Part shown: positions 32,335 through 53,944 of the stretch, one piece after another | Layout of the letters: each line of letters begins with the position of its first letter | Numbering within the stretch: position 1 is the stretch's first letter | Source of the DNA: Sanderia malayensis | Taxonomy: Eukaryota > Cnidaria > Scyphozoa > Semaeostomeae > Pelagiidae | Length of the DNA: 64,000 nt | Assembly (NCBI GenBank): GCA_013076295.1 | Contig: RQOL01000718.1 | Span: 4,934,081 to 4,998,080 of the forward strand | Reading direction: 5' to 3' | Translations under genes and position numbers: made by a program | Notes under the pieces: model-generated | What the model was told of the DNA's origin: nothing | The model's input: the letters and a program-made list of their open reading frames with translations, nothing else | Databases searched by the model: none

Positions 32335-32640
32335 GGGGGCTCTGCCGCATCATCATGTCACGTATGATGTCATTATAATTAACTACTCTAACATCAGGTG
32401 GCGTCTTTATAGATCTTGTAGCATCATGTGATCAACCTGGGTTCTGGCGAACTATCACGTGACTTTTGACGTCATTATAATTAGCGGCCCTAAAATCACG
32501 TGACGTCATTATAGATCCTGTAACATGATGTTATGAACTTGGGTTCTGGCGCAGTATCATGTGACGTATGGCGTCATTATAATTAACTACTCTAACATCA
32601 GGTGACGTTTTTATAGATTGATAGACCTTTTCAGTTGAAT
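32335..32640. repeat. 102-bp tandem repeat, three copies, with CRE-like sites
   Basis: Units begin near 32337, 32439 and 32541 (GGGTTCTGGCG... then CATTATAATTA...). Two perfect TGACGTCA palindromes lie at 32467-32474 and 32501-32508, the second overlapping CACGTG at 32497-32502. No gene start is evident nearby apart from the minus-strand exon at 31944. Confidence 0.8.
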
Positions 32641-32689
32641 GGTTTCATGAGTTACAAACTGTTTTATTTAACAAGTTTTTTGAAATATA

Positions 32690-32815
32690 TGCAATTAAAA
32701 TATATACAACATTTTTCATTCAATTTTCAACAATTAAAATATATACAACATTTAGCATTCAATTTTCAACAATTAAAATTTATACAGCATTTATCATTCA
32801 ATTAAGAATTAAATA
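32690..32815. repeat. 39-bp AT-rich tandem repeat, three copies
   Basis: Units of AATTAAAATATATACAACAT followed by TTxxCATTCAATTTTCAAC repeat three times with few changes. Confidence 0.8.
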
Positions 32816-33060
32816 AATATATACAACAATAATTAAACAATTAAAGTAATAATTAAACATTTAAGCTAGAGTCAACAATGAGACCAGAAATATTTTTTGT
32901 TTTAAAAAGTAATCAATTGAAATGCAAGATAATAAGATAATTGAGAAGGGGAGAAAGACTAGAAAGATTTTAAAAAGTAATTATACTAACTATAGAATGG
33001 AGTTGAAGATAGAAGACTTTAGACACACTGAGATGGAAGGCTTCAATTACCACTTCAATA

Positions 33061-33480
33061 TATGGCTCGCCAAAAGGGAAAATAATACAAAGGTGCCATT
33101 TTATAATACGAATGTCGATTTCATGATACAAATGTCAATTTAATGATGCGAATGTCAATTTTATAATATCAATGCCTATTTCATAATACCAAAGTGATAA
33201 TTTTATACGACGTAGTGGCTTTTTCAGAATACGAAAACTGAACATTTTATAATACGAAAACCGCACATTTTTTCATACGAAAACTGCAGATTTCGTAATA
33301 CGAAATTTTTCCCCTTTTTATGAAAGGAAAATCTCACATTTTTAACACGAAAATCGCATGCGACATTGCTCTTCGCAAATCATACCTATGCGATTCGAAA
33401 ATTATGTTATTCCAAATCGCACTATAAAACGAAATTCGATGCCATTTTAGAATTTTACAATACAAATGTCTATTCCATCT
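33061..33480. repeat. Left terminal inverted arm of the composite element
   Basis: Starts TATGGCTCGCCAAAAGGG. It is composed of short, imperfect repeats of the form AATACGAATGTCAATTT and AATACGAAAACTGCACATTT. Order and spacing match the right arm, including the shared GTATACGACGTAGTGG-like segment (33208-33222 here). Confidence 0.85.
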
Positions 33481-33512
33481 ATGATCTTAGTTTAATGCCA
33501 TGACAACAGGAT

Positions 33513-36420
33513 TTGGCTGACAAAATGGCGTGTTCCACAAATGCCCAAGCAGTGTCCTACAGTGTTTGCAAACTTTACTTGAAGACCTTCCAGAGATTTT
33601 TGTGGAGTTTGGAAGGAACTTCTTCAACACAAACATGGAGGAAATTTTGCAGAGTATGCATGGAAGAGCGACTGCATTGTGTTCAATATTGTCTGTGCTG
33701 GATGCTGATCTTGCTGACCTGAACATTGAAAGAAATCTAGAGCTTTTTGACAATCTCCACGGTGCCTTTCAAGAAATTTGTGCAGAAGCACACAGATACC
33801 GAACGCACTTTCAAGACTCATTTGATCACCCTCTACATCGGAATTCAAATAATGGCACACAATGTCATCTTGATAATGAAGTGTCAGGAAGTGTTGGAAG
33901 ACCAAAAGTACATCTCTCTAAAGAACAAGTGTCTGTATTGATTTCTTTGGGTTTCAAGTTGATTGATATAGGTAGTATGCTGGGAGTGCACCCAAAAACA
34001 CTTCGTAAATTGCGATGGGAATGGGACCTTTCTGTTGGTGAATGTGTGTTGACTGACATCACAGATGAAGAGCTTGATGTAAGAATCACCGCAATTTTGC
34101 ATGAATCACCTAATTCTGGGGAAAGGATGATGATTGGGGCCTTACTGTCTCAAGGAATACGCGTACAACAGGGGCGGATCCAGCATAAAATCTGACCGAC
34201 GCTCTATTGCAGGCTTTTGGGCGTGGTCCATAAACCTTTTGTCGACCACGCTCTTCTAGATATTAAATGTCACTAATAACAAACTTGGCACCTCCAGTGC
34301 TGATCAAATTTGGCTTTAACATACAACGAAGTTCAATGTAAACGAGGCACAGTTTTTGTTACTTATTATACACATTTTTTTATAAGAAAACTGTTTATCA
34401 GAAACCTAGATCTAGACGCCCTAAAATTTAAGAAACTTTTAGAAATACAAGAAAATATCTAAGAAACGTTAGAAATTTCGGAAACACGTTTTTCCTTTAC
34501 GGATTCAACAAATGTCAACTACAGTAAGTATGTTTTTTGTGCAAAGCATAACAATGTCGTGTCTCCACATGACGATTTTTCACATTGACGATTTTTCTTT
34601 GTTATAATACTAATATTTTGCCACATCCACGCTTTTTTCTCGTTTCCATCACATCAACTTTTTTCACTAAACTAACCAACTTTTAAGAAACTTTCAGAAC
34701 TAAAATGTGGCCAAAAATTAAGAAATTTTTACTACTAGGCCTTGAGCCAGGTTTCCTATTAAAAAAATGTGTAATTGAACAAAATTTAACTTAGCAGAAC
34801 ATTTAAATCGAACGTTTAAATTGAACAGAGCAGAATTAAATTTAACATTATTATGATGTCTTCTCACTGAGTGAAGACTTCTCACTCACTGTTAAATTGA
34901 AACTTTGTGTTGTTATGCCACAAATGATGCAGTTCATCCTTAAATTTTTGGCTATATATGTACAGTTTTTTTATATTGTAAATTGCAATGTGTTTGCTAA
35001 TGGGCCTATTAAAGGGGAAATAAATACATGACACTGATACGACAAAGATGCTTTCCATGTAAAACTAGCAGATTTTGAAGAAGACACAAAATGTCTTGAG
35101 ATTTGTATTTTAGAAATTGAAATGTTTGAGCACAAAGTAGCATTTTTTCAATTTAGAGATGTGTTCTTACCGAACTGGTTGCAATTCACCTGCTCGATCA
35201 CATTAAGTGTCAGGGAATTGCAATCTGGAAATTCACAATATTTAGTTTTTTTGACATTATTACAAACTTGATACTTTGAGAACTTGCTAGTAAACAATTG
35301 GAAGCATAAGCATCTTTCTCGGAAGTTTTGAAGCTTTTCTTTAGCCCATTCTCGACGGAGAAAGAGCAATTTAACTCCTTGTTCAAATTAACGCCATTTT
35401 GAAGGATACATTTTGCAACAAAAATCGCAACACAACACAACACATAACACAACAGTTTATCTCTTGGTGTTATAAGTCGATCGAGAAATCAGCGCTCATC
35501 TGATTGGCTTGCATCATTTGAAATGTAAAATGATTGGTTTGCATCAGTAGGGAATGATTCTGATTGGTTTGCATCAGTTTTTCAAATTGACAAACGCTCC
35601 CCGTACTATCTCACAAGCAACATTGATAATTCGGATTGGCTTGCATCAGTAGAGAGAGAAATGTGATTGGTTTGCATCAGTTTTTTGAAATTGACAGATG
35701 CTCCCGCCACTTTTTCGTGAAGCAGCATCCGTAATTCTGATTGGTTTGCATCTGTTTCTTTGCAGACTTGCATTTTGAAGGACTAAGGCTCAGTGGCAAT
35801 GCGAGAAGTGTACCCACTTATCTGTCAACAGCTCCAGGCCCGTAAAAATGGGTGAATGAAACATTTGCTTCTGTTTATAGGGGGAAAACGATGTGAAAGA
35901 AACAAATAGATAGATTCGGGCAAAACGTTATTATTCAAACTCGAATGAAAAATTTTAATTTCTTTTTCAAAGTGAAAATAATGGTAAAATTTTTAATATT
36001 TTCCCGAAAAATTTGACCGACGCATTTGCGTCTGTTGCGTCCTTCTGGATCCGCCCCTGTACAAAGAGCAAGATTGAGAGATGCACTCCAAAGATTGGAC
36101 CCTGTTGGGAGATCTCTCAGACGGAGGCTCAAGATATGCCGAAGGGTTTACAATGTTCCAAGTGCCAACTACTTATGGCACGCAGATGGAATCATAAGCT
36201 GATTCGCTGGAGAATGGTCATACATGGGTGCATTGATGGTTTCTCCAGATTGATCACTTACCTGTGGTGTTCCAATAACAACACATCAGATACCGTGCTT
36301 GGCCTTTTCGAAGAAGCAGTGCAAAAGTTTTGATGCCCCTTAAGAATAAGAACAGACCATGGGACAGAAAATCTTCGTATGGCCGAGAGCAAAGGGGAAA
36401 AATGTTTCGAACGTCCAGCT
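33513..36420 (+). pseudogene. rve/DDE-type integrase-like transposase, split by a hAT-like element
   Basis: Candidate transposase of the composite element. Before the insertion: an N-terminal region (CPSSVLQCLQTLLEDLPEIF), then SKEQVSVLISLGFKLIDIGS and MLGVHPKTLRKLRWEWDL, a helix-turn-helix typical of an expanded animal integrase-core family, ending GIRVQ at 34168. The frame resumes at 36065 as [15 protein letters not shown] and continues [18 protein letters not shown] (first Asp), [14 protein letters not shown], then RIRTDHGTEN (second Asp). Lesions: a frameshift near 33530 at the start, one near 36190 just after the first Asp, and a TGA at about 36332 before RIRTDHG. The frame decays by about 36420 before the Glu of the D,D,E triad is reached. 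The insertion itself is exactly frame-neutral if excised. Confidence 0.7.
34169..36059. mobile_element. 1.9-kb hAT-like non-autonomous element inserted in the integrase gene
   Basis: Termini CAGGGGCGGATCCAG (34169) and CTGGATCCGCCCCTG (to 36059) are perfect inverted repeats, flanked by TACAA on both sides (34164-34168 and 36060-36064). The CAGGGGCGGATCCAG start is typical of hAT elements; the 5-bp duplication fits hAT variants with short duplications better than the usual 8 bp. No transposase frame is visible. The right half carries six copies of a GATTGGTTTGCATCA motif (35503-35760). Confidence 0.85.
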
Positions 36421-37249
36421 ATTGTTTTACTTTATATCAACTGACCAATCAGTGCACTTTAAGAACAATAGGAATGCAACCAAACGCAACAAAAGTGTCT
36501 GTCATGGCGGCTAAAATCCCGCCGAGCTGTGAGAAAGTGATGTTTTTATTTAGGGTTGCTGCCACATATAGTTTCAAAAAACAACTTCAAACTAACATTT
36601 TTCAAAAGAGCAATAATTTTTCTAAATTCCCATCAGCCTGATTTTTAAAATTCATCCTAATAACGAAGATATGAGAAAAGAAACATGCCTAATTTGCATC
36701 AATATTCTTGCCATAAATTCAAGAATGACAGAACAAAGAACGAGTTCAAATCACATGCAATTATTGGCTATTGTTGTTTCTTGGCAGGCAAAATAAAGTT
36801 TACAAATCGGCCCGAAAGGTTTCAAAGTATCGGTACCTTGGTAATTATGTAAACAAGTTCAAAGTATTTCCGATACTGAAAAAACAATGCCAAATTTATA
36901 TAAAAAATAATGCAATAACTCATAGCATGTTGATTGGAGTAACGATAAGGAAGTAGCCTTGATTAATCTAAAGGCTAATGGTTTAAGTGAGATTGGCTGT
37001 GTCTATGAAGAAATTGCAAGGGAAGAGGGGAGTTATTACTATCAAGATCTTACACATAGTTGTTTAGAGTGTTTGATTATCTGCTGCGAAAAGCTTGAAA
37101 AAAAAAGATATATATTTTCAAAATACATCACCCATTTTAAACAATAAGGTTAGCACACCACATTTTTTATTTCATGGTAATTTTGAAAATGAAAAAACAT
37201 TTTTAAAGATGTTTATAGAGACTCCATAACATCAAAACTACCAATATTA
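36421..37249. other. No gene recognised, between integrase remnant and ISL2EU-like element
   Basis: Should contain the 3' end of the integrase gene and perhaps 5' exons of the gene at 41.5-43.6 kb, but neither could be recognised. Open frames at 36771-36956 and 36959-37147 have no known motif. Confidence 0.4.
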
Positions 37250-37478
37250 TAATACACCTTTTGCATCGTGCTTATTTTAGAGGTCTGGCACTAGTTTTTG
37301 GGTGAAAAATTATTTCACCCTCAGCATCTTTGACAGTATTCGTACTGTAACGCTGAAAGTTCACTCTCATTTTGTTCGTATTTTCCACGTTTATATCTTC
37401 TTGACGTAGTCTGTAATCTTTGGAACAGCTTTCTTAAAAGCTCTTGTAAGTACTAAGCTCTTGCAAACTACGAAAACG

Positions 37479-39215
37479 ATGGATTTTCAATTGCTTTCTG
37501 CAATGAAAGTAGAGGAGTTGAAGGTCTTCCTTCGCCTTCGAGGATTGAAAGTGAGTGGTCGAAAGGAAGAACTGGTTGCCAGAGCTTTTGTGGCCATTGA
37601 AAACAATGTTCAAATTGTCCGAACAGCTGAAGAAGTTGAGGAAGCACTTGCCTGCCAATACACTGCAAAGCTAAAAGTTTTTGTTTCAGACGCAGTTGGA
37701 ATTGAAGAAATACCAGACCCTTTTGAACTTGAAGAAGGTTGGATTTCTGAAAGGGATGGAGTCAAACTGTGGCCTTCTACTTTGTATCCAGACATTTTCA
37801 ATTTTTTAAAGTTCCATCCAAATGAATTAGCAAGCAAAGATCTTTCTGATTATACAACTTCAAAGGCATACAGTTATTACCAGGATGGATGGCTGAAGCC
37901 CCTCGATTTTAACAATGTATCACCAAAAAGCTAATTGTGTTTGCTTCGTGCATCATGCCGACCATCACAGAGAGTATCTGATACACCTCACAAGCTGTGG
38001 ATTTGCTTAATGAAGAAAACTGAACGTATTATGGTTGCTCACTGCTCGTGCATGGCAGGACTTTCACAAACATGCAACCACGTAGCTGCAGCACTCTTCA
38101 GGATTGAAGCAGCAGTAAGAATGGGATTGTCAAATCCTTCATGCACATCCAAACCAAATGAATGGTTGCCAAACAATAAAGATGTGGAGCCTGTAAAAAT
38201 TAAGAATTTGAAGCTTGTTCATGGGGACTTTGGAAGAAGAGGAAAAGATAAGAAAAGATTGAATCCAACTCCAAAAACAGAAATTTGATCCTTCTATTCA
38301 TATGAGGGATCATTAACTTTGAATGAAATTGCTGCAAGTTTGCAATCTGTTTGTAAGATTGAGGAAATCCATTATTTTTTCTGCTCGGCCAAAAGAAGCA
38401 AAAACTGCATGCACAGAAACAGACAAACAAACACAAATATTAACCCCATCTGATTTGTTTGATTCGACATCAAGTGCAGATGAATTTGGTGGAAAATTAT
38501 GTTATTTGTTAGGAAACATTCCTGAAATCGAATTGGCAACAAGAGGCCAAAGTAATAATGAATTATGGTTCTCAATGAGAAAACACTTAATTACAGCATC
38601 TAAGGCACATGAAGTTAAAACAAGGATGTCAACATATAAGCGTAAAGGAGCAGCTGCAACTGATTTGTCGAATATTTTTGCAAGAATTTCAGGAAACAAA
38701 CCAGTAAACCCTAGTCTGCCTTCACTTAAATATGGCCTTGCTATAGAAGATGATGCTGTGCAAGCCTTTTTTCAGAAATTTGCCAAAGAGCATAAAAATG
38801 CCACATTAAAGGACTGTGGTTTGTTTATTTCCAACAAACTACCATTTATTGCTGGTAGTCCAGATAGAATTATTTACTGCGACTGTTGTGGAACATCCTG
38901 TCTTGAGGTAAAATGCCCTTTTCGATTGCCCATACCACCCCCAATGACCCAAACATAAAACTACCATATTTGGTAATTGATCCAGGAACTGAATCACTCC
39001 ATTTGAATAGAAGTCACAAATACTTCATGGAGTGTCAAGTTCAGATGGCAGTTACCAAATCAAAACACTGTTACTTTTTTGTTTGGACCTCTCATGACTC
39101 GTTCACAGAAAAAATTCAGTTTGACCAAGGTTTTTGGGACAATACCAAGGACACATTACAGGAATTTTACATAAATTTTTATATTCCACACCTCTTTTCA
39201 GCAAAGGCAAGTTAG
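37479..39215 (+). pseudogene. SAP/SWIM/YqaJ exonuclease-like protein of the ISL2EU-like element
   Basis: Starts at ATG 37479, just inside the left inverted repeat. Residues about 8-45 form a SAP-like DNA-binding motif (MKVEELKVFLRLRGLKVSGR). After an in-frame TAA at 37932-37934 the same frame continues with a SWIM-type zinc finger (CSCMAGLSQTCNHVAA, about 38046-38093). After a stop near 38286 and a shift, the YqaJ nuclease region follows: ITASKAHEVKTR, then AGSPDRIIYCDCCG and LEVKCPF, with the PD-(D/E)xK residues D and E-x-K present. A second shift near 38915 leads to YFMECQVQMAVTKS. YqaJ/lambda-exonuclease proteins resect DNA ends and may process transposition intermediates; that role is inference. 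At least one stop and two shifts make this copy non-functional. Confidence 0.75.
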
Positions 39216-39289
39216 AAATGAATCCATTCTTTTGTATATTTGACTTTTTACTTGCATGTACCCTGAACATTTTTCATATTATTTCACTT

Positions 39290-39640
39290 AGTTAACACTT
39301 CTAACACAATTTTAGGGGTAATTTACTTAGTTTACACTTCGAACACAATTTTGTAGTGATAATTCACTTAGTTAACACTTCTAACACAATTTTGTAGGGG
39401 TATTTTACTTAGTTTACACTTCTAACACAATTTTGTAGGGGTATTTTACTTAGTTTACACTTCCAACACAATTTTGTAGTGATAATTCACTTAGTTAACA
39501 CTTCTAACACAATTTTGTAGGGGTATTTTACTTAATTTACACTCTAACACAATTTTGTAGTGATAATTCACTTAGTTAACACTTCTAACACAATTTTGTA
39601 GGGGTATTTTACTTAGTTTACACTTCTAACATAATTGTGA
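39290..39640. repeat. 41-bp tandem repeat between the two ISL2EU genes
   Basis: About eight copies of ACTTAGTTAACACTTCTAAC ACAATTTTGTAGGGGTATTT, in an alternating pattern (GGGGTATTTT versus GTGATAATTC) that gives an 82-bp dimer. It occupies the space between the convergent gene ends. Confidence 0.88.
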
Positions 39641-39697
39641 TTTAAGCTATTTTACGAATATGGTGAAACTCTATTGCAAGAGGCATGTTGAAATAAA

Positions 39698-41221
39698 TTA
39701 ACCTTTCTTTTCTTGTATTTTGATAAGAGGGGGCTGTATATTAGCAATGGCAGCACAAGTCCTTATAATGTCATCAGCATATGGAAGCATGGTTAGAGGC
39801 AATGTGCCTTTCAATATTCGAAATGTTTTGACACGATTGATTGCACGTTCCACGTGGATTCGCAAATTTGCTATTGATTTGGTTTTCTCACACTCCTCCA
39901 CTGTCATTTGTGATTTTACTCTAGCTCCAGGTGGAACATAAAGTGAGCAATAATAATGGAGTAAATCCTCTTTAATCTGGAAACCACGATTAGCCATAAT
40001 TACATCTCCATATTCAAGGAGAGAGTAAAATCCACTGTTCTGACATATGAACTGATCAGTAGCTCTACCACCAAAGCAATCAGAAATGAACGTTATATAG
40101 CCAGATGGAGCAATGCCTATCAAAAATTTAAAAGTGTTCCTTTTTTTGTAATCTGACCACGTTGCAGCTTGATCACTAAGCGACTTAGGTCTTTCAATGG
40201 TAATTTCAGTGCAGTCAATGATACACCTGGTCTTTCTGTGAGGCCCTTTGAAAACATCAGGCAAATTTGATAATATGGTGCCCCTATCAAGCCATACTAT
40301 TAAGGCAGAGCCTAATATTTTGCTTAGAAACCTTATCCAAGTAGCAAATATTCTTGAGCAGGTGGATGAAGAAATTTGGAATCTGTAGGCAAGGTCATCA
40401 AGTAATAAGCGAAGCCGTAAGCGCATCAAGACAAGCAAAAATTGATCCTTGCCACATAATTTGTGTGTGAGCAATTCCCTCTGTCCAATGGGCTTTGCTT
40501 TTGTGGAGATAATTGACTTTGATCCCCTCCAAAACACCAACTTTGGCAAAAACGGCTTCAATAAGGCAAACATTGCATTAAAAATGGCAAGTGATTGAAT
40601 GCCAGTATAAAATTTAATTTTTGCATCAGAGTGAATTGAAGATGCTGACATTCTGTGCGAGCTTTTACAAACTTCTTTTTCCAATTTGAGGGATTTCAGT
40701 TCATATGACAGCTTGGCAACGTTGTCCTTTAAATTATCCCTTTCTTTCTTAATTAAATCAAGTTCTTCAGAGAGAGAGCCCATATTTAAACATTTGCTAC
40801 ACTCCTCTTTCCTCAAAATATCTGAATCATTGTGTGATACCTTCAATGTAGATGTAGGAGTGGTCATAACAAGCTCCCTTCTAGGTATTTTAGCAGGCCT
40901 ATCATAACCCAAATCTAATGTAGGATTTGGGTTGTCCAAAGTGGGTCTTCCATCCACAAAATGTTTTGGACAGACCATGTCACTTTGGCCTGGAGTCCAT
41001 TCCTGGTCTCCTTTTTTTACTCGTCCAAGAAGTCGTACCCATTCCTTCCTCTTGTCAGAATTCACTTTTACACTCGGAAAAATGTGCAATTTGAATGGAG
41101 GAACACACGGACAATCCTTGTGTGTTTTGCCTTCATGTTCAACACATTCCTTCTTCTCCCAAACCTTGATTTTATATCTGCTGTTCGTACAGCCGATCAC
41201 CGCGCAATTTCCATTCACCAT
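39698..41221 (-). CDS. THAP-DDE_Tnp_4-type transposase of the ISL2EU-like element, catalytic Asp replaced
   Basis: Full-length 507-codon frame from an ATG at 41221 to a stop at 39698, with no lesion. Domains: N-terminal THAP zinc finger with a Cys-rich insertion (CAVIGC near residue 6, MVCPKHF near 83); a coiled-coil-like segment (about 145-190, SEELDLIKKERDNLKDNVAK); an HTH region (RLRLRLLLDDLAYRFQISSS); then the DDE_Tnp_4 nuclease fold with IIDCTEITIERPKS (first Asp), GDVIMANRGF (position of the second acid) and RIHVERAINRVK (Glu). Family members normally have ADRGF at the second position; here codon 39989-39991 is AAT, giving Asn at about residue 411. The protein may therefore bind DNA but not cut. 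It faces the YqaJ gene, and the start lies just inside the right inverted repeat. Confidence 0.88.
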   Translation of the reverse strand: MVNGNCAVIGCTNSRYKIKVWEKKECVEHEGKTHKDCPCVPPFKLHIFPSVKVNSDKRKEWVRLLGRVKKGDQEWTPGQSDMVCPKHFVDGRPTLDNPNPTLDLGYDRPAKIPRRELVMTTPTSTLKVSHNDSDILRKEECSKCLNMGSLSEELDLIKKERDNLKDNVAKLSYELKSLKLEKEVCKSSHRMSASSIHSDAKIKFYTGIQSLAIFNAMFALLKPFLPKLVFWRGSKSIISTKAKPIGQRELLTHKLCGKDQFLLVLMRLRLRLLLDDLAYRFQISSSTCSRIFATWIRFLSKILGSALIVWLDRGTILSNLPDVFKGPHRKTRCIIDCTEITIERPKSLSDQAATWSDYKKRNTFKFLIGIAPSGYITFISDCFGGRATDQFICQNSGFYSLLEYGDVIMANRGFQIKEDLLHYYCSLYVPPGARVKSQMTVEECEKTKSIANLRIHVERAINRVKTFRILKGTLPLTMLPYADDIIRTCAAIANIQPPLIKIQEKKG

Positions 41222-41486
41222 ATCTCCTCTTTCTTGTTAACAAAGGTAGTTTGCAACAGCTTAGTACTTACAAGAGCTTTTAAGAAAGCTGTTCCAAAGA
41301 TTACAGACTACGTCAAGAAGATACAAACGTGGAAAATACGAACAAAATGAGAGTGAACTTTCAGCGTTACAGTGCGAATACTGTCGAAGATGCTGAGGGT
41401 GAAATAATTTTTCACCCAAAAACTAGTGCCAAACCTCTAAAATACGCACGATGCAAAAGGTGTATTAATTACACCAGATAAAGACA

Positions 41487-43600
41487 GTGCTTGAAAAAAA
41501 TGGTGTTATTTTGGACAATGATAGCGAGATGGAATGGGAATCTTCATATGCTGAAACCCAAAATACAGAGGAGGAACAACATGACATTGCCTGCCAAACA
41601 GAAAAGTTAGCCTTTGCAGATAAATCAAGTGAAACAAAAAATGATGACATAGAGATTGATCTTCGGCTTTACAATGATCTTTTAGAAAAATCCTCTGCTG
41701 CTATTAATCTCAGAGATGAAATAGAAAATGTGAAGCAAAAGTGTACTGATCTTTTCGGACATGATGGAACACCAGAAATGAATCCAGGAAAGTTTGAAAA
41801 AATGTGTGAGGATGCTGGTGCTACAAAAATATTCCCCTTTATTTTTAATTCTTTGTGCAGTAAGCGAATGTCCAAGGCCAGGCAAGATCTAAACCGAGTA
41901 AGAACAATGGTAATAATATATATGATGGTGTATGGACAAAGTCAAAAAGCAAATTGGTTTCAAGTTACTCTTTCCAGGACCTTGTCTCAGTATGGAATAA
42001 GTGACTTTGGCTTGGCATCCCTACGGAATCTTGGCATTGCTGCTCATCCACGCACTGTAAAAACAGCATCTCTGTCTGCAGCTGAAAACCACAGTGAAAG
42101 TGTCAAGCAATTTTTTTCCAATGCAGCAGATAATAATCATTTCCTGGTTTTCTTTGTTGATGACTACCACAACATACACACCAAGCACAGACCATCTGAA
42201 ACAAAGCAAACACAAGCTGTTCACATGCCAACATTATTAGTGAAAGAATTTAAAAATATTAAAGCCATACCAGTTGATGGAAACGCAAGTCCACTCAGTG
42301 AAAACCCTGCTGATGTTTCAATGCTGGAGGAAATGTTAAATTCCTTTATGGTTAATCTTTCAAAATCATACGTACAGGATATGCCAGACTGGATAACTGC
42401 AAAGTATTTTGACCCAAACCAAGAAAGACAAAGGCTTCTTGTGCATGATTACCTACAAACAGAATTGAGGAATATGAGGTCAATGAATGATACAAAGCTA
42501 GTGGATTGTCTGGAGATTCCGTTGAAATCTTTTGAGGATATTCTAGGAGCTGTAAAGTATATGCTCAGAAATGGCTTTTCGTTGTACCTTTCCAAGTTCT
42601 TTGCTGCACCATTTGTTGGTGATTGCCCACTCAGTTTTACATGTGGCAAATTGTATATGCAGATACATTCTATCTTCCACATCAATGTCACATCGTTCCT
42701 TTTCTTGGTCCACTGCACATATCTTTAAACTCCAGAGAAACTGTTTTCCTCAAATTTCATCCTGTCTTTAATGAGCTTTACTCTTTTTTGTTAGGACAAA
42801 AGGCAATTTTGGCTAAAAGACCAAAAGCATGGTGTCAGTCATTGTTGTTGGAGGTTCTGTATGGTGGCTGGTCTTTGATTCGAGATGAGATTACCTCTGT
42901 GTTTCATAATTGTAAGGAAGTTGAGTATGTTACGCTGTTAAATCTTGTAGATTCTTACTGTCCTCTTGTCTTGAGTCTGTATTCCATTGAATTCAAAAAC
43001 AATCATTGTGATCATTATATGGAATCACTTTTTCGTTGTTGGGTTATGTTGATGATCTGTCAAAGAAGACACTACAACAAGGCAATTCTGATACTGTTAA
43101 CAACACTGCAAAATTTGAAAAAAGCAAGCCATCAACTGTATAACATCATGCTTAATGCTCTTAATGCCTTTGATGAATATCCAGTAGAGAACTTCCACTC
43201 TGTGCTCAGAGGAAGGACAAAGGCAACAGATACTGGGGAGCAGATATTCTTAAAAGCCAGAGAAATTGATGCATGCAAACACCAGCTTCAAGATTTTAAA
43301 TCCCGGTTTGTTCTGCAAAGAAGTTATAGCTACTCTCCAGCAAAGATCAAGATCCTCAAGCTGAAGGCAGCAAAATTCTTCATAGAAAAATTTGAAAAAA
43401 TAAAAAATAGCCCCAGGAAAGCCTCAAAAATACCACTAGTTCCAAAGCAACGAAAGACGGTGACAAAGTGGACATTGCCAAACATCTTTGGTGACATGAT
43501 GGTTACAAACCAACTATTACCACATGGATTCAATGATCCATCTGTTGCACCTCAACTGCAAAGTAAGTCACACAGTTGTTTGCGAATGAAAATAATTTGA
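41487..43600 (+). pseudogene. Uncharacterised transposon-associated protein, gene B
   Basis: Two frames of one protein. The first (to about 42622) includes DLFGHDGTPEMNPGKFEKMC, SLCSKRMSKARQDLNRVR, FFVDDYHNIHTKHRPSETKQ and QERQRLLVHDYLQTELRNMR. The second (about 42623-43600) includes MWQIVYADTFYLPHQ, VPFLGPLHISLNSRETVF, WCQSLLLEVLYGGWSLIRD, ALNAFDEYPVENFHSVLRGR and a basic C-terminus. They are separated by a single-base loss at GATTG-CCCACTCAG near 42622. The 5' end is not resolved; the ISL2EU-like element lies directly upstream. In outline it belongs with the DUF6589-like multicopy families, but I cannot assign it firmly and know no function. It ends about 140 bases from the convergent HECT-like gene. 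Confidence 0.6.
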
Positions 43601-44049
43601 CAACCACAACGACAACAACATCATGCCAAACATCTAATTTAATGCGAGAAAATCAATGGGATCGGGGTTTTTGAGTTGGGATAACTATGACACTGATGTC
43701 AGGCACGGAATCTAAGTTACACTATTGCACTACAATTTAAACATTACCAAAGCCACTGCAATCCTGCAATGCTGATGTAAACAACTCCTTCATAGCTTCC
43801 CATGTACTCGCATGGCATGGAATGTAGAGTGTCAAGGTGCATGTTGAAGCTGTTGGTCTACATTTGCATCCTACAGGGCAACCGTGTTTGAAGCCAACCT
43901 TGATGGCATAGGGTAGACCAAGTGGTGGCATTGTGGCCGATCCAGTGATGAATTGTGCCAGATCTCCAATGGTTATGTCCACATCGTTCCCTGCAAAGGA
44001 TTGAGGATTTGTTATTGGTGCAGCCCATATGCCGTGATTATTGCACTAA

Positions 44050-44190
44050 AACAATTTGTGCAACATACAACAACAAGAACAGACAGAATTCAAAACCAAC
44101 TTGTGCAACATACAACAACAACAACAAATAGAATTCAAAACCAAGTTGAGCAACATACAACAACAACAACAACAACAACAAACAGAATTT
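44050..44190. repeat. (CAA)n-containing minisatellite in a HECT-like gene intron
   Basis: Three to four units of TTGTGCAACATACAACAACA plus AGAATTCAAAACCAA, with growing CAA runs. It lies in the intron before the last HECT exon. Confidence 0.85.
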
Positions 44191-45126
44191 AGAGCCAAGT
44201 ATATATTGTTACTAGCAGTACTTCACCTTCCACAGACATTTGCTCCACAAGATCACTAAAGTACCTGAAGGTATCAACCTCTTTATCAAATGCATTTGAG
44301 CCAGCAGGTGAATAAAGAACCTCGAGATTTGCTAACAATTCTTCAGGCTCTCATTTGAAAATATGACCATGCATTGTAAAGAGAGATCTACATACAGCTG
44401 GTGACTCTTTTATTGCCTGCAAGACTCCAAATAACCCCAGGCCCTCCTCAAATTGACGCAGAGATGTGTACACAGGTGAGATAATCTGCTTGTAGAACAG
44501 TGATCTACAAAACGATTGAAAACCAATACAAGACATTACAAAGCAAAGTAGGATAAGTTTCCGAACATCCAATGTTTTATACCAGCAATGGTATGATGAT
44601 GTGGATACATACTGTAGCAGTTTGAGCCTTGATGTTAGTTTTGTGTAGCCAATGAAGCCCAGCACATCAATGCCAATATCACTCATCAAAAAATCTTGAT
44701 ATTCTTCCTCTGATGATGCATTTGTTACCTGAAATAAATTTATGGTGCTGCATGTATACAATATATAAATATAATGTATATACACATGTGTTACATATAT
44801 GTTTACCATCGCAGAAGCAAGTACCTCATAGTTACCTTGTAGACAAAATCATTATATTTTGCATCCATTAGATCATAGTCAATAGGAAATACTCTGGTCT
44901 GGAAGCCTATTGTTCTAGTTTTTGTCAGTCACATGACCCAAAAGTGTGCATTGCGACGCCTTAGCAAAGCCGCGAGCACTGTGAAATGCTTACAAATCAC
45001 ATTGGAAAAGTTGAGAAATATTCTTCAAATCATATCTTCAAATAATACATTACGGTTTGTTGAGTGGCAAGAAGTTATAAAACAGTTCTTTTTAGAACTT
45101 GGTCAAAATTTATCAAAACAGTGGCT

Positions 45127-46435
45127 ATGGCTCACAATGCGAACGGTTTTGTGAGTGGAGATACACTTGACCTCATACTCGATTGGTTGGATGACGATAT
45201 TTTGGACACAGAGTTTGAAGAAGAAATTGAACAAGAAGCAGAAGAGGTACAAAGAATTCTACCACAGTAGGCTAATTTGTTGATAAATTGAAACTCATTT
45301 ATAAACCCTTCACATAAGGACACTACTTGCAGCTGTTATTTAGGTGATAACAAAATTTTAGGCCCACTAGTACAGACAGTATTTTATCAGTTTTTGAGTT
45401 ATTTTATTCGCTCTTTAATGATCTTAATACCTATTTCCAGGTAGCAAACACAGGCCAATTCTGTTGCACGTCTTGCTCCAAAGTGTATAAAACCAAAGGT
45501 GGACTTTCTCATCATGTGAACATGAAACATAACGCAGAAATAAAAAAGGCAGATGAACTTGAATGGGAAACATTTGACAGCATTTTATCTAACACACAAC
45601 AAGCGATCGCTAAGACAAATGCTATAAAGATTATGTCAGAAGGAAAATTGGTATTTGCCAGCTTACTGAAACAGAGAAGCAAACTATATATTCTGCTGTA
45701 CAAGCCCTATATGTAGACCTCGGTAGAACTGATAATGCAGAAGAATTTTATTCTTTGTACTGCAGTAAAGTGATTTTAAACTCAAAAGAATTATTTCCAA
45801 AACTTCAGCAGCCACTTTGTAGTTTGTTTGCAAAAAGGCTGGGGGACAAGCTGTTTGCCAATGCAAAAAAACCTGTTCAAGGCCCAACAGAGAAGCCACC
45901 TCCAATCACAAGCAAAGGAATGGGAGGACTTCAATTCCTTTCAGGTTATGTTGTAAGAAAATTTTTGAAAAAGTCAAAAACTAATAAAAATTACCTCAAG
46001 CAAGAGCACCAATTTATTATCAAGGTACTCACCACTTTGATTACATGTAATTATGCAGATCAGCCACTTATTCAGGCAACAAGTCAAGGAGGGCTCACAG
46101 CTGTGAGCCAAAACATGCAACAAATTTTCAGGACAGCTGAAGAGAAGTTCAGGCTGGAGACTTCAATACAGTGACTTAAAAGAATTGATACCTGCAAGAT
46201 GACTGAATGCCTCATGAGAGATACATGAATTGTCAGTGTATATGGGAACATTATTCAGGAAAGTGGAACTGACATTGACCAAGAAATCAAAAATAACCTT
46301 CTTGAGAAAGTGCTCAAGTTATATTTAAGATTTCGTGCTTTCTCTTTAGCCAAGGACATTACTAGCAAGCATCGTGTAGCTATAAAGGCTAAAAAAGCAA
46401 AAAGTCTCAGAAAAAACAATAAAGAAAGCTACTGA
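45127..46435 (+). pseudogene. Zinc-finger accessory protein carried by the P-like element
   Basis: ATG at 45127. Exon 1 (45127-45246) encodes MAHNANGFVSGDTLDLILDW followed by an acidic helix. It ends at GAAGAG|GT and joins, in phase, an exon after TTTCCAG at 45441. That exon opens with a C2H2 finger (CCTSCSKVYKTKGGLSHHVN then MKH). A one-base shift near 45650 moves the frame to QLTETEKQTIYSAVQALYVD, and the protein continues through LCSLFAKRLGDKLF and GMGGLQFLSGYVVRKFLKKS. Two TGA codons (46172, 46228) precede a basic tail (RFRAFSLAKDITSKHRVAI) ending at 46435. The GGLQFLSGYVVRK segment resembles a motif in some transposase C-termini. Function unknown; a regulator or DNA-binding helper is only a guess. 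Confidence 0.6.
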
Positions 46436-46582
46436 TAAGCCTGCTATAACTGATTAAAATATCACAACTATGTAATATAACAACTTAATGTAACATAACT
46501 ATGTAATATAACAACTATAAATTATGTTCCATAAGAAAGTATACACTTGTTAAAATGTCTCATTATGTACCAAACCCCTACC

Positions 46583-49532
46583 CTAATTGTTTTGCAAAAA
46601 AGCTGCTGGGGTTTGACCAAGATATCTTTTCTGCCATGGCTGATTGTCTACATGATACCATAATACATGGCGCTTTTTGTTGTAGCTGCCTCTAGTGTTG
46701 CCTGTCACAGGAGTAATTGACCTTTGCATGCAGATGGTATTGGACTGATAACCAAACTGTTGTATGGAAGGGTTATCACTTTTTCGGCCAAGAGCACGGT
46801 GTGTTCCAAAATATCCTTCCAAAGTATCTTGATTAAAGTTTTCAGTCAGCACAAAAGGCATTCCATTTTCAAGCCAGAATCGAGTGGCCTCTATGACTGA
46901 ATTTGCTGTGATGATCAAGCCTTCGTAAGTTTGATTGGATAAGAACATTCTTTCACGATCATTCATTGAAAAGTTTCCATTTCTTTCTTAGACACACTTT
47001 TTCCAATTCTTCAAAAAGGTTAGAAATTGATTCTGCAGCCAATCAAATCGATGATCATTGACAGATCGATAAGGTGCCAGAAAGTCTTTTCTTTGGCCTA
47101 TGCCTTCAAACTGATTTCTAACATTTAAACAATCGAAAAACTGTCCATGCACTCACACAATTCAGCAGTTGCATGTGTTGTGGCTGGGTAAAAATTTTGT
47201 AAAACTTTCGAAACACTGCTACTCAAAACCTGGACTGCAAGGAGAACATTCATCACTGAATATGGTGTAAGGTTGACATGTTCATGTGTTAGTTTTGGTA
47301 ACAGCTTCAATCCATTGTTTAGCTCGTCATCAGCCAGTTTCACAATATGATACCAAACAATATCCTTTCCATTGTTCCATAATCTCCGAGTATTTTTTCC
47401 ACTTCCTAAAATTTCAACAGTATATATATTACTAAATATGACTTTGCTTTATTTGTACCTAAACATTAGAATATTTGGGTTGGTATTTAATGAAATATGA
47501 CAGCATAAAGCCAAAATACCTGAGTGGTAAACACAATTCCTTGTAGTTTTCATAAGATGAGGTGCATCTGCAAAGAACCAAATATATCTGCGTGTTGTTG
47601 CAAAGAAATTGATGGTTCTGTAAACAACATCACTTTCAACTTTATCATCCAACAAATGGTGCATTTTATAAGTATGCATTTTCTGTTGGGAGAAGCACCA
47701 TCTGAAACTGCAGCAATGGCTGGCAATTCACATGTCATCTCTAAAACTGCAACTGCTTCCCAAAATGTCGGCATGATTTGAAAGGATGTGACACCTTTTG
47801 TACCAAAATATGCCAAACTAAACTTGAGATCAGATGCCAATCCTCTTAAATAGTACACTAGGGCATGCGTGGCTAAGTCATTAACATTGGTGAACGAGGA
47901 TAGTTCAGGCCAGGGTCTCCAAGGTCAACATACCCAATCAAATTTCCAGAGTATTTATCAAAGACCAGATTTTCTTGGACCTTGACCTCATCAAAAGACA
48001 ACACAACATACCGTTGGTAACCAGTAAGGCTTTGTGTAGTCTTGACTAATTCAGCAATGACTTCAGCATTGAATCCAGCAGACAGTCTTATTGCATTTTT
48101 GTAATCTGGTAATGTTCTTCTAGAAGGCAATTCAGCACTTGCGATGAACGTAACTCTTCATATGCTCGTGACGATTTTGAAGCAAGAGAGAGGCAAAACC
48201 TTATTATCATAGGATGATATCTAATCTGGCCATTAGAATTGGCTGCCATCCTTTGTTGTTCCCAAAACAGTTGCATAAATGGTGACACATTTTGTTGATT
48301 TTCAATCATAATTTTATTAAAATCATCGCTCATGTCCTGGCTTACTTGAACACCCTTTGATACAATTTCCCTCTTCATGCGATAAATTTTTTACTTGAGC
48401 ATATTTGTTTTTGCCCTTTCTTGCATCAAGGCAAGCTCTACACACTGACGGTTTGTTCGGGACAGTGGTGCAAATGGCTTGGCAGGAGTATTTAAACGTT
48501 GTTGTCTACTGGCTGCTTTCTTCTTGCTTTTTACCTCGAAAGCTGCACAATTGCTGCAAGAATCACTGTTCTCTTTTGAATGGACAATCATGCATGTCTT
48601 TACTCTGCTGACTAGTTCGTTCAGGCATGGTGTCCCATCAGTAAAATTGCCCAGATCAATGTGACAAGGAATAACCTGACTTGTAAGTTCAGAAGTTGAA
48701 CCAACTTCAGAAGAGTCAACAGCTACACCAATGCAAAATTTGTATGACTGAATACAGGACAAAAGATTTGAAATTGTAATGTTCCTTACTGATCTGTAGT
48801 ATTTCTTGCACAACTCATTGTCACTTGGAAGTGGCCAACCAAAAACAATACAGCTGTAATTCAAATCTTCATCAACAATGATTTCTTATTTTAGCAATGC
48901 ATAAGGATTCATCATCTGTTTGAAATGAACTGCATTATCAATGATTTTGACATCCCAAATTGATAACTTCAGGTTCTTGGTGCGCTTTAAGAAATCATCC
49001 ATGTTTTTATAGATAGCTTTTTCTTTTGGGGCTTCAATCCTGTCCTTTACAATATTTATATGCCGTCTTTTGGTAGATTTCTTGACATCATGTGACTTTA
49101 TGGGAAGATTCAGAGTGGGGACAACATCATCTTTTAGCTTTTTCATGCCAGTCCCTGATAAAAATAACAGTTAGCTGATCACAATTAAACGAAAAGTACT
49201 GCCAAAAATATTTATTACATATATGTTAGTGCCTAGGGCAAGCAAGCACAAACATGTAAATTCACATGTAAATTAAAAGCAATAACAACTCTTGTCAATT
49301 CAAAATCTTCATCTGAAAAATGTCGTTCGAATATGTAAACATTGCCAGCCAAAACCCTTTCCCTGAAGACATTATCTATCACTCTGAACCTGCTAATGAT
49401 ATCCACCATGTCCTTTCTCCATTTGGAATAAAACTCATTTTTCCTTGTTGGTATTTGGAAAAGGTTTAGGCCACCAAACTTCGTTGCCTCCGAGACGGAG
49501 CACTGCGGAAAAGCGCAGTTCTTCCCTGGCAT
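46583..49532 (-). pseudogene. THAP/P-element-type transposase (THAP9-like)
   Basis: Minus-strand P-type transposase. N-terminus (49532): THAP-like CAFPQCSVSEATKFGGLN, with W and ERHFSDEDF, but the usual Cys before ERHF is Phe (YIFERHF), losing one zinc ligand. Then NYSCIVFGWPLPSD, a predicted helical linker, YHPMIIRFCLSLASKSSRAY and LPDYKNAIRLSAG. The catalytic core follows: VVLSFDEVKVQENLVFDKYS and GNLIGYVDLGDPG, then ALVYYLRGLASDLKF, WFFADAPHLMKTTRNCVYHS. C-terminus: [20 protein letters not shown] and [10 protein letters not shown], the usual P-family end. In-frame TAA codons at 48886 and 48391 and frameshifts near 48125 and 47900 (and probably more, or introns, below 47450) disable it. Family identification is firm; exon boundaries are not. 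Confidence 0.78.
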
Positions 49533-51867
49533 ATTTCAACTTTAAATGATTATAAAGTTCTAAAAAAACTGTTTTAAGACACTCAAGAAACGTTTCTGTA
49601 CAAAATGAATGTCAGTTGACAAATATTCCTCGATCGATTACTACAATAGGGGACAAAAGTCGTGGGACACCCAGGATTTTAGCAAGTTTTACACGCATAC
49701 ATCATCCCCCTCCCCCCCACAACAATGTTGTTTGTAGAGGCGGTGTTTTTCAATATCGCCGAAATTCTTTTGGCCCGACGACAACAAAGGACTGGTGCAC
49801 AAGACAACATTGTTTTGGGGGGAGTGGGGGGTCGCATTCTGCTCACAGAGAACAAAGTGTGCAGAAGCACAGCATTATGGGATGAAATTTTCAGGTGTCC
49901 CAAGGACTTTTGTCCCCTATTGTACTTTCCAGCAAAAAATTTACGTGTTTAATGTGTTTTACCATTGGTTTTACAGTGTTTACGGAGTTGCTAAGGCGTC
50001 GCAATGCACACTTTTTGATCATGTGACAACTTTTAATCACTGACTCAAGCTCCCGGCGGGAACAATAGACCAAAACAATAGGCTTCCAGACCAGAGTATT
50101 TTCTATTGACTATGATTAGATCAACATTGTTTGCAAACTTCACATTTTGCAGCCAATCAACCAGGCAATCGTACACCCAACAAATTTGGTGATGGTCCTC
50201 CTTGACAAATTGTTGTGGCACAAAGCTCACCAGCAAGCAAGAAATCTTTGTTGGCAATGGCAATAGCATTCTCTTTCGGTATCATTCCCATAGTTGTATT
50301 CGTAAATAGTCTGCTTCTCATTTGCTGCAATGCCCCTGTGAAAAAATAAATATCTTCGATATCTTTCGCCTTTTCCCATTTCACTCCTTCCACACAAAAA
50401 ACACATTTAATTATGTTATCATATTCACATCATCCACCCATTAAATGTTAACTTGTCAAACAGTAATATACCTGCAAAAAATTCTCTGCGTGGTCCACCC
50501 TCATCCACTGCAGCTTCGCCTACAAAAACCAGAGTGAATGCACTGTTGTTCTTCACCCACTTCTTCTTCCTGTAGTCCACATAATCTTGCCACATGGTCT
50601 TTCTTTGCACATACAGTTGTCTCTTATTTCCTGCCAATTTTTCTACCAAAACAGCTATCTCTTTTCTAGCCTCAGCTGGTGCCACCCATTCATGTGTGGA
50701 ACGCACAGTAACAAGCTCTTCTTGTGGCTTCTCGGCCTCACTGCAACCATCACTGCCAAATTCAGAGAGCCGAATGTCCTGAAAAGTCAGGTCATTGTAC
50801 AATTCTTTTTCTGGTTGCATTCCACTGTCAATGCAATCATTGGTGTGTGATTGTATAATATGTACTGGAAAGTACACCAAACGTACTGGACACTGCCTCT
50901 CTGATGTGTTGATGCCTGAATTCCCACGGGAAACTGTGCCAGTTTTCTGCTGCTCAGACTGGCCACAGATCTCTTCTATGTCCACACTCTGTTTATTTTC
51001 TGCATATGGTGCTCTAGATATAGTACTGGCGGCCACTGTTACAGAAGACTGGGACTGTGTTGTGATCGTATCTGCAAACATTGATGTCAGACACAGTTCA
51101 TCATCATCATCAACATCATTATCATCATCATCACCAGAATCTTTCAGGAAATCCTTCATTCTTCCTCTGCCCAATCCAACATCCAAATATCTGTAAGAAC
51201 GAACATACAGAGGTCCTTGACCAGTCTGATGCTTCAGAATCTTATAATTCCATTCGGGTATTTCAGGAACGGAAAAAAGCCGAGGACCCACAGCTTTCAT
51301 TATCTCGAATTCTGGTTTCACAGTCAATTCGTTGAAATGCGGAATGGAATCTGCAATGGCTTTTCTTATCTCGTGTTCTACCATGGTTGACCTGAACGCA
51401 ACGTCTGAGCCAATGAGCCCAACATCGTAGTAATGTTGTCTATCATGCCTGCGGGGAACCTTCGACATTCTCGGATCGTTGATAAAGAAAACATCTTTGT
51501 ATGCCATAGTTTCCTTCTCTTCCACCACCCGCTTTCTTTTGCCTCCCTTTTCTGCCCTGTTGAAAGGATTCCTGGATTGGTTCCGAGCACGAGCAGAGGA
51601 TGGTAAAGGCAAGGATAGGAAAGAAGGCAAAGATGATGCCGGTGTACATTGTGGTCTGTTTGATGCCGAAGGTGCGATCAATCCTAAGCTAGGATACAAT
51701 CTACACAACACATCTTCACTTCTATTTCTTGGCTGTTCTACACTGCTCTTAATTCTAGTATTTTCAGTTTGCTGGTTAATTGCGCTAGATGCTGCACTAA
51801 ACAGTTCTGTCAGCCTTGCAACCATGTCGTTTGTGCTTCGTTTCACCATGATTAAAGTGCAGCATGT

Positions 51868-52315
51868 GTGACATGTGGTATCAAATTTCGTATTTTGGTA
51901 TCAAATGGTATCAATTTTTGTATTTCAGAGTTTGCAGTTTTTGCATCATAAAATGCGCAATTTTTCTATCAAATTTCGTGTAACAAAATGTCGGGTTTTC
52001 GTATCATAAAGCGGTATCAATTTCCATGTCATAAAAAATGGTATCAAATCTCGTATTATGAAATCTGCACTTTTCGTATTAAAAAATGTGCGGTTTTCGT
52101 GATATAAAATGTACAGTTTTCGTATTATGAAATACGCCACTACGTCGTATACAATTATCACTTTGGCAGTATGAAATAGGCGTTGATGTTATCAAATTGA
52201 CATTCGCATCATTAAATTGACATTTGTATCAGAAAATCGACATTTGAATTATGAAATTGACATTCGTATTATAAAATGGCACTGTTCGTATTATTTTCCC
52301 TTTTGGCACGCCATA
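51868..52315. repeat. Right terminal inverted arm of the composite element
   Basis: Inverse complement of the left arm: read on the minus strand it begins TATGGCGTGCCAAAAGGG, then AATACGAATGTCAATTTC, the CGACGTAGTGGCGTATTT segment, and AATACGAAAACTGTACAT. It lies immediately before the ATG of the HECT-like gene (51849, minus), so it probably supplies that gene's promoter. Confidence 0.85.
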
Positions 52316-52321
52316 TCAATA

Positions 52322-52801: not shown

Positions 52802-53944
52802 GCCTGTTCATATGGGGCGGGCTAGCCCGGCAAAACGGGCCAGCCTGGTTGGGCGAGATATTTTTTGTGCATCTTCATATGGAGGCGGGCCAGCCCGTTT
52901 AGGTGATTACAATTTGGCGAGAAAGTGAAATATGGCGGGTTTACACGAAATTACAAGTTTAGTTACTACAACTTCTTTGGCTCTTTTGTCGTTGATGTTA
53001 CAGTTACATGGCTTAGTTTTACTTTGGAAAATACATCCAATCAGGCAAGCTCAGCTTATCAGGTCATATATCGCAAGAAAAAGAAACTTTTTTATTCAGA
53101 AGCTCAAGATGGCAAAGAGGAGACGTATGCTCAGAAAGAAGAGAAGTTGTTTGTTTAAGCCTGGCAGAACAGACCAATGGTGGCAGAATATGATTGGAGG
53201 CCAGCTACCAGATGAAAACTGGAAAAAGAACTTTCGTATGCAAAGAAATGACTTCTTCAAGCTCTGCGAGGAACTGAAACCTTACATTTCTCCACAACCA
53301 TCACCAACTTCAGGGCATTGTCAGCAGAGAAAAAGCTTGCGCTTACCTTACGAGAGAAAAAGTAGCGGAATTTGAGGCTAAATTTGGTATGGCACAAGCT
53401 TTTGGGTGCATTGACGGCACCCATGTACCTATTCTTTGTCGTAAAGAAAATTTTCAAGATTACTTTTGTTACAAGCAGTATTACTCTATTAATACCCAGC
53501 TGTATGTGATTACAAAGGGTTGTTTATGGATGTTGAGTACATGTGGCCAGGCAGTGTGCACGATGCCAAAGTGTTTGCTAATTTATCCTTAAACTTAAAG
53601 CTTCAAGAGCGAACCTGTAATAATACTTTCAAATCAGTTCTGCCAGGGTGTCAAAGAATACCTAGCTACGTGATTGGCGATCCTGCTTATCCGCTAACCC
53701 CTTATTGTTCGAAAGAATACCTGACTTGCAAAGCAACGAACAAGTTGTCTTCAACCAAATGCTGAGAGCTGCCAGAAATCCCATACAGTGTGCATTTGGG
53801 AGGTTAAAGGCCAGATTGTCAATATTAACAAAAAGAATTGACTTAAAATTGGAATCAATACCAACAGTTATTTACTCATGCTTTGTTCTACACAACATTT
53901 GTGAACAAAATCAGTCATATGTTGAAAACGATTTGTTATATTAA
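52802..53944 (+). pseudogene. PIF/Harbinger transposase remnant
   Basis: A possible left terminus (GCCTGTTCATATGGGGCGGG, followed by inverted AGCCCG/CGGGCC motifs) sits at about 52801, preceded by TTACA. An ATG at 52932 opens an N-terminal frame ending in WKKNFRMQRNDFFKLCEELK. A deletion of roughly 150 bp then removes the region between SAEKKLALTL and REKVAEFEAKFG. The DDE_Tnp_4 core follows: AFGCIDGTHVPI (first Asp), a frameshift near 53505, WPGSVHDAKVF, VIGDPAYPLTPY (second Asp), a frameshift near 53710, and IQCAFGRLKARL, where the usual Glu before CAFGRLK is Gln. It ends at a TAA near 53942. No matching right terminus was found. Harbinger transposases cut at TWA targets; this copy is dead. 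Confidence 0.8.

What the first reader, a model, noticed from the sequence alone, without database searches (positions are those of the whole stretch)
33061..52315. A 19.3-kb nested element whose native genes are an integrase, an unknown protein and a HECT ubiquitin ligase
Seen directly: inverted arms of about 430 bp starting TATGGCxxGCCAAAAGGG, flanked by TCAATA on both sides, and three transposons nested inside. With these removed, about 7.9 kb remains, holding an rve-type integrase, gene B, and a convergent HECT-domain gene. The integrase and HECT genes start just inside opposite arms, as transposon-carried genes do. DNA transposons using retroviral-type integrases (Ginger, Polinton) are known, but I know of none with this trio. 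It is a candidate new superfamily or lineage.
Basis: partly seen in the sequence, partly recalled or inferred. Interest (0 to 1): 0.88.

Follow-up and report, generated by a model that had tools for sequence, protein, structure and literature searches.

The report
IS3EU-type transposon carrying HECT ligase
The window holds a broken copy of a mobile element that recurs in this genome (likely that of the jellyfish Sanderia malayensis), in which a gene for a retrovirus-integrase-like enzyme, the likely transposase, lies tail-to-tail with a gene predicted to encode a HECT ubiquitin ligase, which would tag host or transposon proteins and so likely helps the element to move.

Summary
The element is real: 33061-52315, ends TATGGC..GCCATA, arms of about 270-295 bp, TCAATA on both sides. 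Its ends, 6-bp duplication and transposase domain match IS3EU/GingerRoot, a known DNA-transposon superfamily, so a new superfamily is not supported. A second copy without the inserts (C655, 6,043 bp, duplication CTTTTG) shows two native genes: a 467-aa integrase (PF24764) and a convergent HECT gene. Gene B is not native; it belongs to another transposon family (X) lying inside. Four elements are nested, not three, and both native genes here are broken.

The new part is the HECT gene. Of 91 scored integrase loci in this genome 38 have a HECT match within 2 kb, 38 of 38 tail-to-tail (0.39 expected); 53 do not. L041 (483-bp arms, GAAAAT duplication) carries an unbroken integrase and an unbroken HECT frame. 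The catalytic cysteine is kept in 12 of 12 aligned copies. No paper in the searched library holds both 'IS3EU' and 'HECT'; Repbase could not be searched. So: a known superfamily with an apparently unreported, recurrent ubiquitin-ligase gene. Its substrate is inferred; I favour a protein that limits transposition. It is not universal: 3 of 3 short sponge-associated contigs with the integrase show no HECT.

The parts
33055..33060 (.). left target-site duplication TCAATA
   Evidence: sequence
33061..33332 (+). left inverted arm, starts TATGGC
33530..34168 (+). N-terminal part of the integrase (transposase) gene, about 89% aa identity to the C655 copy over 213 codons
34169..36059 (.). nested element A, ends CAGGGGCGGATCC..GGATCCGCCCCTG, duplication TACAA; absent from the C655 copy (hAT-like by recall)
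36060..36387 (+). integrase core piece; frame interrupted; the part with the catalytic Glu that follows in C655 is missing here
36388..43579 (+). nested element X carrying gene B; independent family elsewhere in the genome; right arm missing here (left boundary good to a few bases)
37252..41465 (.). ISL2EU-like element nested inside X (THAP plus DDE_Tnp_4, YqaJ and SAP frames; TA on both sides)
41487..43579 (+). gene B region, part of X and not of the IS3EU-type element
43740..44045 (-). HECT gene, last coding stretch with the catalytic Cys
44222..44737 (-). HECT gene, inner coding stretches, with one in-frame stop
44876..50115 (.). nested P-element-like transposon (weak PF21789 match), duplication TTAGATCA, inside the HECT gene
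50114..50345 (-). HECT gene, second coding stretch
50464..51849 (-). HECT gene, first coding stretch with finger-like motif (one Cys changed) and start of the HECT domain
52020..52315 (-). right inverted arm, ends GCCATA
52316..52321 (.). right target-site duplication TCAATA
   Evidence: sequence

Best explanation
The window holds a broken copy of a two-gene DNA transposon whose features match the IS3EU/GingerRoot superfamily: an integrase-like gene, the likely transposase, and a convergent gene predicted to encode a HECT ubiquitin ligase, which would likely tag a protein that limits transposition. The transposase would bind the inverted arms, probably through its N-terminal helix-turn-helix-like region, cut the element out with its D-D-E site and join it to target cuts staggered by 6 bp (inferred from the family and the 6-bp duplications). 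The ligase would take ubiquitin from a host E2 onto its C-lobe cysteine and pass it to a substrate; finger-like and CUE-like N-terminal regions in some copies could hold ubiquitin or substrate. Shown by sequence: gene content, ends, duplications, conserved catalytic residues and the recurrent tail-to-tail pairing. Inferred: enzyme activities and substrate. Among roles I favour a host factor or a post-transposition complex that limits transposition (about 0.5) over turnover of the transposase itself (about 0.3) and no role (about 0.2).
For: Second copy with both genes and its own 6-bp duplication; PF24764 E 2.4e-73; HECT frame over 5 exons and independent public models with consecutive gene numbers (P0001, P0121). 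38 of 91 scored integrase loci have a HECT match within 2 kb, 38 of 38 tail-to-tail, 0.39 expected. L041, L042 and L044 have arms and 6-, 6- and 5-of-6-bp duplications. HECT Cys in 12 of 12, Asp-2 and Glu in 12 of 12, Asp-1 in 11 of 11 that reach it. Profile matches both lobes of E6AP and AREL1. Integrase and HECT distances correlate, r 0.66, p 0.00025, 11 families. Family criteria.
Against: 53 of 91 scored integrase loci, the window's own among them, have no HECT match within 5 kb. 42 of 72 single-piece HECT loci have no listed integrase within 5 kb, though 3 of these 42 do. The distance correlation falls to r 0.35, p 0.085 when the closest families are dropped (8 families) and the trees disagree on L036. 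0 of 3 sponge-associated contigs show HECT. dN/dS of 0.5-0.6 between the window and C655 copies is only a weak sign of constraint. No expression, activity or substrate data.
Confidence: 0.7

Rival explanations
1. The HECT gene is a passenger: host HECT sequence captured now and then by IS3EU-type elements, with no role in transposition.
For: 53 of 91 integrase loci lack a HECT match; 0 of 3 sponge-associated contigs have one; HECT proteins of different families are only 21-23% identical to L041's; L036 sits differently in the two trees.
Against: 38 of 38 pairs share one orientation, the catalytic Cys is kept in 12 of 12 copies, and distances correlate over 11 families.
Confidence: 0.2
2. The element is a Ginger or Polinton relative, or a new superfamily.
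For: The integrase also matches PF00665 rve (E 5.4e-8) and retroviral integrase weakly.
Against: Best domain PF24764; the 6-kb C655 copy shows no further long frames suggesting polymerase or capsid genes (read by eye); Pfam reports no HHCC-type domain; ends and 6-bp duplication fit IS3EU.
Confidence: 0.05
3. Arms and genes came together by chance or by nested insertions: the HECT gene is a host gene and the element only inserted beside it.
For: The window is a nest of at least four other elements.
Against: The C655 copy has both genes between its arms at an unrelated site with its own duplication; 38 tail-to-tail pairs against 0.39 expected; L041 and L042 have both gene types between arms.
Confidence: 0.02

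Closest known systems
IS3EU/GingerRoot superfamily (PMC10045372, PMC12730594; the GingerRoot paper itself is not held)
   Same: integrase-type DDE transposase, TA..TA ends (TAYGG..CCRTA in fungi), 6-bp duplications, a second gene opposite to the transposase in fungal TET+ families
   Different: second gene is a HECT ligase; in the fungal TET+ families it is an alpha-kinase
Ginger1/Ginger2, Polinton
   Same: rve-type integrase fold
   Different: PF24764 best domain, no HHCC domain reported, IS3EU-type ends
Helitrons with VTD or OTU domains (PMC9741609, passages)
   Same: transposons that carry a ubiquitin-pathway enzyme
   Different: deubiquitinases, not ligases; rolling-circle element, not a DDE transposon
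E6AP, AREL1 and other HECT E3 ligases
   Same: both lobes and the C-lobe cysteine align
   Different: transposon-borne, 21-23% identical to L041's across families, other N-terminal regions

Membership tests
IS3EU/GingerRoot | integrase-type DDE transposase of this clade | tested here: inconclusive
   PF24764 E 2.4e-73, D-D-E residues kept; Repbase members were not available for a tree
IS3EU/GingerRoot | TA..TA ends | tested here: met
   window, C655, L041, L042, L044: TATGG..CCATA in 5 of 5 elements whose ends were read; L043 not covered to both ends
IS3EU/GingerRoot | 6-bp target-site duplication | tested here: met
   TCAATA, CTTTTG, GAAAAT, TGTTGC exact; L044 CACTTT/CACTTG 5 of 6
IS3EU/GingerRoot | no HHCC domain before the core | tested here: met
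   Pfam shows only weak HTH matches there
IS3EU/GingerRoot | phylogenetic grouping with named members | not tested
   no Repbase or GingerRoot sequences held
Ginger1 | HHCC domain upstream of the core | tested here: not met
   not reported by Pfam
Polinton | polymerase, capsid and other genes in a large element | tested here: not met
   C655 copy of 6,043 bp with two recognisable genes
HECT E3 ligase | bilobal HECT domain with catalytic Cys | tested here: met
HECT E3 ligase | ubiquitin thioester and ligase activity | not testable with these tools
   needs biochemistry

The most novel reading that the evidence does not exclude
Animal IS3EU transposons are two-gene machines in which a HECT ubiquitin ligase is an ancient, largely co-inherited partner of the transposase that promotes transposition, so that part of the HECT gene expansion in this genome, and perhaps in other animals, is transposon cargo rather than host genes.
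Probability: 0.45. Interest if true: 0.75.

Novelty: new variant of a known kind. Interest (0 to 1): 0.62.

Why it matters
Transposons that carry deubiquitinases are known (PMC9741609, passages). A DNA transposon with a recurrent, catalytically conserved ubiquitin ligase beside its transposase would suggest that such elements steer host protein turnover in order to move. It also gives a rule for telling transposon-borne HECT genes from host ones (next to PF24764, tail-to-tail), and intact-looking pairs such as L041 make the role of the ligase testable.

Tried and rejected
Three-gene element and new superfamily: rejected by the C655 copy and by independent copies of X. Arms as stray MITEs: 7 arm matches. 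The pair outside this genome: the two HECT searches returned 6 proteins each from capped candidate lists. P0124 (HECT) and P0019 (integrase N-terminal part) are both on a contig of 4,513,672 bases in an ENA source, which suggests but does not prove a second genome with the pair; P0125 and P0126 lie on contigs (66,526 and 79,816 bases) whose lengths do not recur among the 120 integrases listed of 1,546. IMG/VR scan: 48 pattern matches, 0 relatives. GTDB scan: 3 relatives, in contigs of a sponge-symbiont MAG, 0 of 3 with HECT at E 0.1 (contigs of 3.4-4.2 kb, one of them ending inside the integrase). Structure prediction of the L041 HECT protein from 5 sequences was poor (mean pLDDT 48); the 50 Foldseek matches listed of 252 are HECT ligases, with TM-scores of 0.4 or less, so I lean on sequence profiles. 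A tree of host against transposon HECT genes was not attempted. Genome counts rest on capped lists: integrase 91 of 519 candidates scored, HECT family 129 of 222, P0121 60 of 231, X arm 40 of 151. Rows dropped before the distance test: L018, L019, L023, L030, L033, L034, L040 as near copies of kept ones, L032 for its short integrase. In one search the 21 multi-piece loci come alone; the transposon HECT gene of C655 is itself spliced and multi-piece and appears only. Papers: IS481EU paper (part 1 of 5 and passages), TET paper (passages), VTD paper (passages), jellyfish genome paper (passages); all others as search listings only, among them the 17 papers that hold HECT, DNA transposon and transposase, which I did not open. 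The claim of no print record rests in this library alone; the GingerRoot paper and Repbase were out of reach. The labels hAT-like (element A) and Harbinger-type (52932-53375) are from recall.

Full report
1. Observation. The element spans 33061-52315. Its ends are TATGGC..GCCATA and TCAATA stands at 33055-33060 and 52316-52321. The inverted arms align over about 270-290 bp at 83%, shorter than the 430 bp claimed. The genome is 184.0 Mb in 918 contigs; with medusozoan relatives among the best protein matches this suggests the jellyfish Sanderia malayensis, published at 184.4 Mb in 970 scaffolds (PMC7305137, passages). The name is an inference.

2. Second copy. The left arm has 7 matches: this element's two arms, three pieces on contig C655 and two short ones on C781. 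On C655 they bound a copy of 6,043 bp with CTTTTG on both sides, 89-95% identical to the window in four long pieces and without the inserts. It has a 467-aa integrase in one frame (PF24764, E 2.4e-73) and, convergent to it, a HECT gene that joins into a 773-aa frame with GT/AG at each of four introns, one of several in-frame choices. Public models with consecutive gene numbers fit this locus: P0001 (integrase, identical) and P0121 (HECT, PF00632, differing in splicing).

3. What is nested in the window. Against C655 the window has four inserts. Element A, 34169-36059, has TACAA on both sides and a matching empty site in C655. Element X, 36388-43579, carries gene B, lacks its right arm, and replaces about 1.1 kb of native sequence that includes the integrase part with the catalytic Glu. 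An ISL2EU-like element, 37252-41465, sits inside X. A P-element-like transposon, 44876-50115, with TTAGATCA on both sides, sits in the HECT gene. X is an independent family: at C859:6241204-6244998 its left arm, gene B (96%) and an inverted arm follow one another; other arm copies form short inverted pairs; gene B has 15 matches in the genome including this one. Both native genes are broken here: the integrase by two inserts, a stop, a frame change and the missing end; the HECT gene by one insert and an in-frame stop. The window copy is a fossil.

4. The pair recurs. A HECT family search gave 134 matches, 93 loci after merging. The 30 loci cut out by that search are 26 after removing overlaps; 15 contain an IS3EU-type integrase in their 1.5-kb flanks, and by the coordinates all 15 are tail-to-tail. 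An integrase search gave 92 matches, 91 loci. With the HECT matches joined, 38 of 91 integrase loci have a HECT match within 2 kb, no further ones within 5 kb; 38 of 38 are tail-to-tail; 0.39 are expected by chance at 2 kb and 0.79 at 5 kb. 53 have none, among them the window's own, whose HECT pieces the inserts have pushed away. From alone, 0 of 21 multi-piece HECT loci, as ordinary spliced genes appear, and 30 of 72 single-piece loci have a listed integrase within 5 kb; three of the other 42 (L021, L027, L032) do have one. The C655 HECT gene is spliced too, so the number of pieces is a rough guide only.

5. Other elements with ends. Four loci were cut longer. L041: 5,023 bp, 483-bp arms at 97%, GAAAAT on both sides, a 485-aa integrase and a 744-aa HECT protein, each in one frame. 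L042: 5,279 bp, 285-bp arms at 99.6%, TGTTGC on both sides, a 642-aa HECT frame, integrase split over two frames. L044: 4,708 bp, arms at 98.6%, CACTTT/CACTTG, a 609-aa HECT frame and a 508-aa integrase frame. L043: not covered to both ends, integrase split over two frames. Under a looser rule (up to 5 mismatches in 18 bases, observed 0) shuffled L041 and L042 gave an end pair in 1 and 3 of 100 shuffles; the arms of hundreds of bases were not part of that control.

6. Conservation. In 12 aligned copies (11 families) the HECT cysteine is present in 12 of 12, the second Asp and the Glu of the integrase in 12 of 12, the first Asp in 11 of 11 that reach it. A profile of five HECT proteins matches E6AP and AREL1 over both lobes. 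A finger-like motif before the HECT domain is shared by the relatives of the C655 protein, with one Cys changed in P0124 and in the window copy; L044 has a zf_C2HC_14 match and L043 a CUE match, each just below Pfam's cut-off. Integrase and HECT distances correlate: r 0.66, p 0.00025 (11 families); 0.49, p 0.0024 (10); 0.47, p 0.024 (9); 0.35, p 0.085 (8) as close families are dropped. The trees agree on L041, L024 and L038 and disagree on L036. dN/dS between the window and C655 is 0.5-0.6 for both genes, a weak sign of constraint.

7. Family. PMC10045372 gives IS3EU TA..TA ends, usually 6-bp duplications, no HHCC motif, and one lineage with GingerRoot. PMC12730594 gives fungal TET+ IS3EU families TAYGG..CCRTA ends, 6-bp duplications and an alpha-kinase gene opposite to the transposase. 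The elements here meet the end, duplication and domain criteria. That PF24764 marks IS3EU is my reading; a tree with Repbase members could not be made. No paper in the library holds both IS3EU and HECT, none holds HECT, Ginger, transposon and integrase; 17 hold HECT, DNA transposon and transposase and I did not open them. Repbase entries may record the HECT gene.

8. Mechanism. Integration with 6-bp staggered cuts is inferred from the family and the duplications. The role of the ligase is inferred: fixed orientation, conserved catalytic Cys and correlated distances argue against a mere passenger, and transposons with deubiquitinases (PMC9741609, passages) show that ubiquitin control can travel with transposons. 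I commit to a helper role against a factor that limits transposition, at about even odds, with transposase turnover next.

9. Limits. Counts come from capped lists and are not totals. The pair outside this genome rests on one suggestive case (equal contig length for P0019 and P0124), and 3 sponge-associated contigs show the integrase without HECT. Expression and activity are untested.

Noticed in passing
window 36388-43579; G000 C859:6241204-6244998: Element X with gene B: a transposon family with arms of about 300-370 bp, whose arms also occur as short inverted pairs (MITE-like); gene B has no Pfam match at or above cut-off.
   Followed up: partly
window 37252-41465: ISL2EU-like element with THAP plus DDE_Tnp_4, YqaJ and SAP frames and a 41-bp tandem repeat at 39269-39665; TA on both sides.
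   Followed up: partly
window 32337-32842: Two tandem repeats left of the element: 102 bp x 3 and 39 bp x 4.
   Followed up: no
G000 C781:4616411-4616521 and 4636075-4636121 (L009, L010): Two short arm-like matches in the same orientation about 20 kb apart; no element resolved.
   Followed up: partly
L045-L047 (contigs of a Cycloclasticus sp. symbiont MAG from a Poecilosclerida sponge): IS3EU-type integrases in a bacterial MAG, likely sponge DNA that came along; L046 also has a retroelement-like frame beside it.
   Followed up: partly
window 52932-53375: ORF of 147 aa right of the element that by eye resembles the start of a Harbinger-type transposase; not searched.
   Followed up: no
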